NCBI RefSeq assembly: GCF_000385215.1
Contig: NZ_ARQK01000030.1
Location: forward strand, 1-39,886
DNA from: Thioalkalivibrio thiocyanoxidans ARh2
GTDB taxonomy: Bacteria; Pseudomonadota; Gammaproteobacteria; Ectothiorhodospirales; Ectothiorhodospiraceae
Length of the DNA: 39,886 nucleotides
Reading direction: 5' to 3'
Shown here: piece after piece, positions 1 through 39,886 of the stretch
Numbering within the stretch: position 1 is the stretch's first letter
Layout: each line of letters begins with the position of its first letter
Notes under the pieces: model-generated
Seen by the model: only the letters and a program-made list of their open reading frames with translations
Told to the model about the DNA's origin: nothing
Database searches by the model: none
Translations under genes and position numbers: made by a program

Positions 1-83
1 GCTTTTGCGTGCGAACAAGGCGCGGTGACCGCCGTGCAGTCATTCTGCACAAGGGAGCCGCAACGCCGTGCGCGCGCAAAAGC
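1..83 (-). repeat. Structured palindromic repeat, copy 1 (window left end)
   Basis: An 83-base imperfect palindrome. Bases 1-13 pair with 71-83 (GCTTTTGCG against CGCAAAAGC, then one G-T wobble and three more pairs). An inner hairpin has stem GTGCAG (34-39), loop TCATT and stem CTGCAC (45-50). Strand is assigned by the core shared with the element at 122-208: GCGTTGCGG then CACCGCGCCTTGT, both read on the minus strand here. Bases 1-82 are identical to 39805-39886. It lies downstream of pheA in non-coding DNA. Function is unknown; a REP/BIME-like or MITE-like dispersed element, or a structured RNA, are the candidates. Confidence 0.8.
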
Positions 84-121
84 GGCCGAGCCCCTGCATT
101 CAATAGCTTGTGGGGTTGGTG

Positions 122-208
122 CCCCAGGTTCCCCGATCCTGCGTTGCGGTCCTTGCCGGTAGAACCACTACCGGCTGCGCACCGCGCCTTGTCTCGGAAA
201 ACCTGGGG
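122..208 (+). repeat. Diverged member of the same structured repeat family
   Basis: An 87-base imperfect palindrome. The outer stem is CCCCAGGTT (122-130) with AACCTGGGG (200-208), then a 2x2 internal loop and CCGA/TCGG (133-136/194-197). The inner hairpin is GCCGGTAG (155-162), loop AACCA, CTACCGGC (168-175). It shares GCGTTGCGG (141-149) and the 13-mer CACCGCGCCTTGT (180-192) exactly with the terminal repeat read on its minus strand. The outer and inner stem sequences differ but remain complementary. It is in inverted orientation to copy 1 and 38 bp from it, which is a BIME-like arrangement. Relationship by descent is my inference from the shared core and architecture. Confidence 0.7.
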
Positions 209-215
209 TATCAAC

Positions 216-245
216 GCGAACGTGTGCATGAATCAGTGTTCCCCT
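216..245 (+). repeat. Conserved 3' tail of the structured repeat (left copy)
   Basis: GCGAACGTGTGCA followed by TGAATCAGTGTTCCCCT, 3' of the element at 122-208. The minus strand next to the right-end element carries GCGAGCGCGTGCA followed by CTGATCAGTGTTTCCCT, about 80 percent identical over 30 bases. The tail runs into the last codon region of the oppositely oriented pheA gene; its final base is part of the pheA stop codon. The tail therefore looks like part of the repeat module and not a promoter of a particular gene. Confidence 0.55.
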
Positions 246-39765: not shown

Positions 39766-39793
39766 AGGGAAACACTGATCAGTGCACGCGCTC
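39766..39793 (-). repeat. Conserved 3' tail of the structured repeat (right copy)
   Basis: Read on the minus strand: GCGAGCGCGTGCA then CTGATCAGTGTTTCCCT, matching the tail near pheA (216-245). It lies 11 bases beyond the element at the right end and about 23 bases before the flhF ATG, so it would form part of the flhF leader. It contains the 12-base perfect palindrome CACTGATCAGTG (39773-39784). Confidence 0.55.
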
Positions 39794-39804
39794 GCGCTCG
39801 AGTC

Positions 39805-39886
39805 GCTTTTGCGTGCGAACAAGGCGCGGTGACCGCCGTGCAGTCATTCTGCACAAGGGAGCCGCAACGCCGTGCGCGCGCAAAAG
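39805..39886 (-). repeat. Structured palindromic repeat, copy 2 (window right end)
   Basis: Identical over all 82 bases to 1-82, in the same orientation, with the same outer stem (less its last base, cut by the window end) and inner GTGCAG/CTGCAC hairpin. It sits upstream of flhF. Because the identity is bounded exactly by the palindrome arm, it is most likely a repeat at which an assembly stopped. A circular molecule with overlapping ends is the less likely alternative. Confidence 0.8.

What the first reader, a model, noticed from the sequence alone, without database searches (positions are those of the whole stretch)
122..208. Structure-conserving intergenic repeat family with covarying stems
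The element at 122-208 and the terminal repeat share the cores GCGTTGCGG and CACCGCGCCTTGT exactly. Their outer stems (CCCCAGGTT/AACCTGGGG against GCTTTTGCG/CGCAAAAGC) and inner hairpins (GCCGGTAG-AACCA-CTACCGGC against GTGCAG-AATGA-CTGCAC) differ completely while staying complementary. The 5-nt loop keeps the pattern AAxxA. Compensatory change around a fixed core indicates selection on a folded RNA or single-stranded DNA form, or a transposase-recognised hairpin. I cannot assign it to a named family.
Basis: partly seen in the sequence, partly recalled or inferred. Interest (0 to 1): 0.75.

Follow-up and report, generated by a model that had tools for sequence, protein, structure and literature searches.

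The report
Mobile folded repeat, possibly ERIC-related
The repeat is one half of a small mobile DNA element whose core and two-hairpin shape recur, with quite different stem and end sequences, in about a third of the gammaproteobacterial genomes sampled, and possibly in ERIC, a repeat of E. coli and its relatives whose function has stayed unclear.

Summary
Confirmed, and larger than stated. The 122-208 element ("B") and the terminal repeat ("A") are two inverted modules of one mobile element, mostly 268-312 bp, with ~24-bp terminal inverted repeats and a 4-bp YTAR target duplication; its ends match a ~1.2 kb IS5-family insertion sequence of related genomes. The exact core occurs 50 times in the genome (reversed control 0).

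The module recurs inside elements with other ends: a covariance model matched 96 of 274 gammaproteobacterial genomes (80 of 221 genera). Ninety non-redundant copies covary strongly (0.81; shuffles at most 0.21). All 50 detected module pairs are convergent, 45 of them 106-111 nt apart. No Rfam family matched at its gathering score. G.U exceeds A.C on one strand, and 39 of 50 independent sites between co-directional genes lie B-first: this points to RNA, though the terminal repeats look DNA-driven.

ERIC is a likely distant relative, not proven: one Pantoea copy carries the whole core; E. coli, Shigella and Vibrio copies do not score. No function was tested.

The parts
1..244 (-). Copy 1 of the element, cut at its module-A end by the contig start. 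On the minus strand it reads terminal repeat, module B, linker, module A.
   Evidence: R1 matches at 1-82 (+) and 125-208 (-); terminal-repeat match 228-244 (-); whole-element match C30:1-245 (-), 86% identity to L016.
1..82 (+). Module A (ACAAGGCG-sense on the + strand), cut 2 model positions short at the contig end; conserved core on the minus strand at 58-66 and 15-27.
   Evidence: R1 68.7 bits, E 7e-19.
83..124 (.). Linker between the two inverted modules (CCCC/GGGG-closed hairpin in the long-linker form).
   Evidence: Position between the two R1 matches; the same long linker in L049, L227, L231.
125..208 (-). Outer stem CCCCAGGTT/AACCTGGGG, core GCGTTGCGG / CACCGCGCCTTGT, inner hairpin GCCGGTAG-AACCA-CTACCGGC.
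   Evidence: R1 68.6 bits, E 7e-19; sequence.
223..244 (-). Terminal inverted repeat of copy 1, read on the minus strand GGGGAACACTGATTCATGCACA; it abuts the end of a 371-aa ORF (245-1360, -).
39767..39886 (-). Copy 2 of the element, cut by the contig end: terminal repeat 39767-39788 and module A (ACAAGGCG-sense on the + strand at 39803-39886).
   Evidence: terminal-repeat match 39767-39783 (+); R1 match 39803-39886 (+), 76.5 bits, E 3e-21.

Best explanation
The feature is half of a non-autonomous mobile element (a MITE). SHOWN: in this genus (inferred to be Thioalkalivibrio) the element has long terminal inverted repeats and a 4-bp YTAR target duplication, and its ends match those of a ~1.2 kb IS5-family insertion sequence; inside are two inverted copies of a conserved folded module around a small hairpin; the same module pair recurs inside elements with unrelated ends in many other Pseudomonadota. 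INFERRED: IS5-family transposase acts on the ends in trans and inserts the element at YTAR, sometimes exactly at a stop codon. The element is then transcribed with its neighbours and folds as a junction of three hairpins on the terminal stem, with module B in its sense form (ACAAGGCG...CAACGC) towards the 5' side. The unchanging bulges (AAG, CAA) beside the GCG/CGC helix are the part that is recognised, most likely by a conserved host RNA-binding or RNA-processing factor, so that the element sets the stability or processing of the messages around it, while the stems drift freely as long as they pair. The cassette has been picked up by transposon ends of several kinds; ERIC would be one branch.
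For: Copies: 50 exact cores, reversed control 0; 175 terminal-repeat-like sites at up to 2 mismatches, control 2. Ends: 76 copies type I/I, 41 II/II, 0 I/II of 119 (2 undecided); within-copy mismatch 1.58 and 1.17 of 24 versus 3.86 and 2.85 between copies, 0 of 10000 shuffles as low; identical flanking 4-mers 43 of 119 versus 16.3 shuffled (maximum 27). These 119 still held 3 false pairs, removed later. IS5 partner: 9 of 19 DUF772 loci carry both matching ends, one of them at the very start of its contig; NCBIfam IS5 319, 306 and 270 bits, cut-off 140, in the three transposases scanned. Fold of one copy -186.5 kcal/mol, z -14.4. Covariation: 39 of 84 pairs with two-sided change over 61 copies; A3 score 0.526 versus 0.153 shuffled and 0.10-0.15 slid; 90 copies below 80% identity 0.81 versus 0.18 shuffled mean. 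Breadth: 96 of 274 class genomes, 88 of them at best E of 1e-6 or lower; 80 of 299 phylum genomes. Architecture: 50 of 50 pairs convergent, 43 with a CCC-n-GGG linker. RNA strand: G.U 69 versus A.C 32 in Watson-Crick-majority pairs, 68 versus 17 without three core columns; G.A and A.G cells frequent at two neighbouring pairs (23 and 22 of 90). Orientation: 39 versus 11 of 50 independent tandem sites, p 9e-5.
Against: No RNA, binding partner or effect on expression was measured. The terminal repeats show A.C 32 and G.U 20, no RNA strand preference. Module A is in its antisense form in the favoured orientation. The covariance model came from sequences chosen by an exact core pattern, so core invariance is partly built in; alignment A4 was fitted to the model; and I left 9 copies out of A1, at least 6 of them with an insertion that breaks the B stem, which flatters the count. 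About half of 61 copies lack the intact outer stem of module A. The window's own genome has no DUF772 match, though it lies in 61 contigs. For one other end type (G241, G093) no autonomous transposon was seen. Gene calls were my own crude ones; 9 of 89 elements scored as intragenic, and the kinds of intergenic place (tandem 47, convergent 14, divergent 13) resemble the background gaps (147, 42, 49), so there is no preference for gene ends as such. No control was run for the stop-codon coincidence.
Confidence: 0.62

Rival explanations
1. An ordinary MITE whose palindromic interior has no function: arms stay complementary because hairpins template their own repair (template switching), or because element ends are converted to one another, not because a fold is selected.
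For: In 117 of 119 copies both ends belong to one type (2 undecided, 0 mixed), one type resembling one end of the IS and the other type its other end, as conversion would give. In the terminal stem two-sided changes (188 cells) far outnumber A.C plus G.U cells (52), without strand preference. Inserted segments are themselves self-complementary.
Against: It does not explain unpaired bulges kept while stems change across many families (partly built into the model), the 106-111 nt offset of 45 of 50 module pairs, the G.U excess on one strand inside the modules, or the 39:11 orientation bias. Likely right for the terminal repeats alone.
Confidence: 0.25
2. The module is recognised as single-stranded or cruciform DNA, for example by a transposase or nucleoid protein, and not as RNA.
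For: Two convergent modules make the element nearly strand-symmetric; G.T is also the mildest mismatch in DNA (recalled), so the strand bias does not exclude ssDNA.
Against: Orientation relative to transcription (39 of 50) has no simple explanation at the DNA level, except through an insertion bias tied to transcription.
Confidence: 0.2
3. A REP/REPIN system moved by a RAYT (Y1) transposase.
For: Inverted pairs of imperfect hairpins in intergenic regions; Y1_Tnp genes in 26 of 30 genomes of the genus; a published survey reports GTAG-1 REPs in Thioalkalivibrio sp. K90mix (PMC3733652, passages).
Against: Y1_Tnp genes occur also in genomes without a match to the element (for example G002, G003, G004, G020, G025-G028). 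The ends match an IS5 element with YTAR duplication.
Confidence: 0.04

Closest known systems
ERIC (enterobacterial repetitive intergenic consensus; also in Vibrionaceae)
   Same: Intergenic palindromic MITE. In 13 copies aligned, 2 (L328, L334, both Pantoea) carry CAAGGCG...CAACGCnG in full. L328 matches ACAAGGCG + CAACGCnGT with 0 mismatches (300 random resamplings: minimum 3) and R1 at E 0.005. The G168 elements, which R1 finds at E 5e-14 to 5e-13 in the six copies fetched, have the end TATACCCAAACCACCTCAAGATGC (L309), identical at 20 of 24 places to the end of a Vibrio ERIC copy, L336.
   Different: One module, not two; longer apical part; 4-5 core mismatches in the two E. coli, one Shigella and one Vibrio copies tested (10-65% of resampled sequences do as well), with no significant R1 match there.
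IS5-family MITEs
   Same: Ends, YTAR duplication and the IS5 partner in the same genus.
   Different: Both ends of a copy resemble one and the same end of the IS, unlike a plain internal deletion; no resemblance of the interior to the IS was noticed, but none was searched for.
Correia/NEMIS, RUP, BOX, YPAL and similar structured MITEs
   Same: Non-coding, structured, next to genes; RNase processing is reported for some (Correia RNase III, ERIC RNase E; PMC10969869, passages).
   Different: No sequence comparison with these was made; naming them rests on the papers' lists and on recall.
REP / REPIN
   Same: Inverted pair of imperfect hairpins.
   Different: IS5-type ends and target duplication, larger size, no specific RAYT association.

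Membership tests
MITE of the IS5 family | Terminal inverted repeats | tested here: met
   116 distinct elements with paired ends in held loci.
MITE of the IS5 family | Target duplication of the IS5 type (YTAR; the type is recalled) | tested here: met
   43 of 119 identical 4-mers versus 16.3 shuffled; mainly CTAG 24 and TTAA 13. The other 76 differ, as in old copies.
MITE of the IS5 family | Autonomous IS with matching ends | tested here: met
   9 of 19 DUF772 loci with both ends, in 5 genomes of the genus; IS5 by NCBIfam. None in the window's own genome.
MITE of the IS5 family | Transposition in trans shown | not testable with these tools
   Needs a transposition assay.
ERIC | Sequence similarity to ERIC | tested here: not met
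   The window's genome has no match to a Pantoea ERIC copy (1 weak partial match in 185 genomes).
ERIC | Shared folded core | tested here: inconclusive
   Perfect in 1 of the 5 copies tested with a null; R1 E 0.005 in that copy, nothing below 0.3 in the other five sources.
ERIC | About 127 bp, ends TATACCC | tested here: not met
   107 of 116 elements here fall at 268, 282, 297 or 312 bp (each +-5), ends GGRRAC. ERIC-like ends occur in G168 elements.
REP/REPIN | RAYT gene linked to presence of the repeat | tested here: not met
   Y1_Tnp in genomes with and without the element.
REP/REPIN | GTAG or CGTC tag at the foot of the hairpin | not tested
   GTAG lies inside the B hairpin stem in the copies read; no systematic test.
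Known RNA families (Rfam 15) | Match at the gathering score | tested here: not met
   0 matches in the window and in 20 loci; in 6 further loci at E up to 1, one match outside the element, 27.5 bits against a gathering score of 115.

The most novel reading that the evidence does not exclude
A Pseudomonadota-wide superfamily of mobile structured-RNA cassettes: one conserved two-module fold, carried by the ends of several unrelated DNA transposons and read by a conserved host factor, with the 35-year-old ERIC repeat as one of its branches.
Probability: 0.45. Interest if true: 0.88.

Novelty: new variant of a known kind. Interest (0 to 1): 0.76.

Why it matters
Small intergenic repeats such as ERIC are used for strain typing but their origin and role are open. 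If many of them carry one conserved fold swapped between transposon ends, they become one testable problem: find what reads the fold. The invariant bulges, the nearly fixed geometry, the free stems and the orientation bias give direct mutational predictions, and the end swaps give a way to watch non-autonomous elements change hosts.

Tried and rejected
Rfam: no assignment. RAYT/REP: rejected. Papers: searches listed no description of this family or of a core shared by ERIC and other MITEs; only titles and abstract starts of most were seen, and the library lacks most subscription papers, so this is no proof of novelty. PMC3733652 and PMC10969869 were read in passages only; PMC2267715 in outline and one section (its table lists ERIC and counts 67 families as then new, with no sequences that I could compare). 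ERIC DNA search over 185 class genomes: 1 weak match, so ERIC itself is narrow. Search for an autonomous transposon with the G241/G093 ends: no + / - pair 0.8-3 kb apart among the places listed. IS630 was considered as partner because of the TA; dropped when 4-bp YTAR duplications and the IS5 ends appeared. R1 on E. coli ERIC: nothing significant.

Rows dropped before counts: 3 false terminal-repeat pairs (L081, L082_2555, window_30813) were still among the 119 and were removed, leaving 116, of which 112 are at least 250 bp. A1 used 61 copies: 60 of the 69 non-redundant ones plus L016; of the 9 left out, 6 carry a segment that breaks the B stem and one (L038) a deletion. A2/A3 used 23 of the 29 representatives (left out: L191, a chance pattern match; L021, a hybrid; L069, L124, L151 and one of L158). 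One search used 90 of 141 rows of A4; of 116 elements 85 had a predicted gene within 300 bp on both sides (21 of 27 own, 64 of 89 in relatives), 80 after removal of orthologous sites. Several single matches of the pattern search are chance (seen on folding).

Full report
THE OBSERVATION. In the window alone they prove little, but the 13-mer CACCGCGCCTTGT occurs 50 times in the genome against 0 for the reversed control. Reading the copies with flanks shows that A and B are not independent repeats: they are the two inverted halves of one element, B first, then a small hairpin, then A in the opposite direction. The window starts inside one copy and ends inside another; its 83-bp identical ends are an effect of assembly at this repeat.

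THE ELEMENT IN ITS GENUS. Of 116 elements 107 fall at 268, 282, 297 or 312 bp (each +-5), the steps coming from small, often self-complementary insertions. They end in inverted repeats of two types, compared over 24 bp. Of 119 pairs, 76 are I/I, 41 II/II, none I/II, and 2 undecided; within a copy the two ends differ at 1.58 (I) or 1.17 (II) of 24 places, between copies at 3.86 or 2.85, and 0 of 10000 shuffles reach the observed sum (three of the 119 were false pairs and were removed). Flanking 4-mers are identical in 43 of 119 against 16.3 in shuffles, mostly CTAG and TTAA. A whole copy folds at -186.5 kcal/mol (z -14.4): a terminal stem, module B, a small hairpin and module A.

PARTNER TRANSPOSON. 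Of 19 DUF772 loci in the genus, 9 have both ends matching the element, L162 with one of them at its contig start. One IS end reads GGAAACRCTGATCAATG, like type I; the other has GATTTAATC, like type II. The three transposases scanned are IS5 family (319, 306 and 270 bits, cut-off 140). In L163 an element and an IS lie side by side sharing CTAG. The window's own genome has no such gene. By whole-element DNA search, 16 of 30 genomes of the genus carry the element; the five genomes with the matching IS (G005, G006, G009, G011, G016) are among them.

COVARIATION INSIDE THE FAMILY. In 61 full copies, 39 of 84 consensus pairs have two-sided changes; copies with a broken B stem had been left out. The B outer stem occurs as CCAGGTT/AACCTGG or CCCTGTT/AACAGGG, with mixed arms in 4 of the 73 copies (of 112) in which both arms are legible. 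In the terminal stem two-sided changes (188 cells) exceed A.C plus G.U (52), and A.C (32) is not rarer than G.U (20), so this part looks like a DNA-level effect; in module B G.U (199) far exceeds A.C (21), though the consensus fold itself favours G.U.

BEYOND THE FAMILY. The same core sits in palindromes with other ends in MAGs labelled Competibacteraceae, Chromatiaceae and others. A class-wide exact-pattern search matched 38 of 369 genomes; the reversed control matched in 8 genomes, once each, and some single matches are plainly chance. Cores of exactly 52 nt with new stems came from at least six further families. Read on the complementary strand the module is: P1 stem, internal loop, nAC, AAG, GCG, P2, P3 hairpin, P2', CAA, CGC, n, GU, P1'. 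On 23 representatives the covariation score is 0.526, against 0.153 shuffled and 0.10-0.15 with slid partners. The model R1 matched 96 of 274 gammaproteobacterial genomes and 80 of 221 genera at E 0.001 (88 genomes at 1e-6 or lower), and 80 of 299 phylum genomes, 56 of them outside the class, 43 of these in one family; several of the other 13 are weak. Only the best 15-16 candidates per genome were scored, so copy numbers are lower bounds, and E-values are rough.

ARCHITECTURE. In 89 sources with matches, 50 hold a module pair; all 50 are convergent (+ then -), 47 are distinct sequences, 45 lie 106-111 nt apart, and 43 have a CCC-n-GGG linker, with three of the genus having a longer CCCC...GGGG one. 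In nine further genomes (40 loci) the copies, read by eye, end in quite different inverted repeats, often with CTAG at the rim, and in G168 with ERIC-like TATACCC ends.

RNA OR DNA. In 90 copies under 80% identity the score is 0.81 against at most 0.21 in 300 shuffles; in pairs whose commonest state is Watson-Crick, G.U is 69 and A.C 32 (p 3e-4), or 68 and 17 without three core columns. These cells are not independent. G.A and A.G cells recur at two neighbouring pairs where P2 ends (23 and 22 of 90). With my own gene calls, 50 independent sites lie between co-directional genes, 39 with B upstream and 11 the reverse (p 9e-5); the window's genome alone gave 8 and 2, relatives 35 and 9 before removal of orthologous sites; an earlier run gave 39 and 8. 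The kinds of intergenic place do not differ visibly from the background. In 22 of 80 sites a reading frame ends one base inside the element (my count, no control), as expected if YTAR targets are stop codons. In the window, copy 1 lies B-first downstream of the 245-1360 ORF, in the favoured direction. Together these favour RNA, but no RNA was seen.

ERIC. The recalled ERIC sequence finds 5376 of 5426 E. coli genomes, confirming the query. R1 gives nothing significant in an E. coli copy. Of six sources only the Pantoea copy scores (E 0.0054; the next 0.36), with the core perfect. Thirteen aligned copies suggest that CAAGGCGGC...GCCAACGCnG could be the older state, kept whole in two. The match of 20 of 24 places between a G168 end and a Vibrio ERIC end was counted; no control was run for it. 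I hold ERIC to be a probable relative (about 0.7) but do not file this element as ERIC.

LIMITS.

Noticed in passing
window 1-83 and 39804-39886; contigs C11, C23, C25, C34, C42, C45 and others of G000: Many contigs of this assembly begin or end inside or close to the element, so the repeat probably fragments the assembly and copy counts are lower bounds.
   Followed up: partly
L163:446-770: An element and an IS5-family transposon lie side by side and share one CTAG.
   Followed up: yes
L021:415-573: A 159-bp single-module copy that is a hybrid: one outer arm from B and one from A, joined at the core, so its outer stem does not pair.
   Followed up: partly
L112:1756-1929; L130:695-884: Shortened copies (174 and 190 bp) that keep one module and matching ends.
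   Followed up: no
L057, L062, L077, L126, L146, L150: A subset of type II copies carries an inserted segment ending ATTCAGAATCGGG that breaks the 3' arm of the B outer stem.
   Followed up: no
G000:C45:57708-57977 and 58334-58552: One element lies about 360 bp from a Y1_Tnp (RAYT-like) reading frame; no general association was looked for beyond presence per genome.
   Followed up: no
G241:C55:5114-5196 and C78:33632-33706: Pairs of the G241-type end only about 75-85 bp apart, too close to hold any module: still smaller elements with the same ends.
   Followed up: no
L169:91-1262: An IS630-family transposon with a perfect 20-bp inverted repeat lies directly beside the IS5 element.
   Followed up: no
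L178, L199, L200, L206: Module variants with a 71-72 nt core instead of 52, like ERIC in their longer apical part; possible intermediates.
   Followed up: partly
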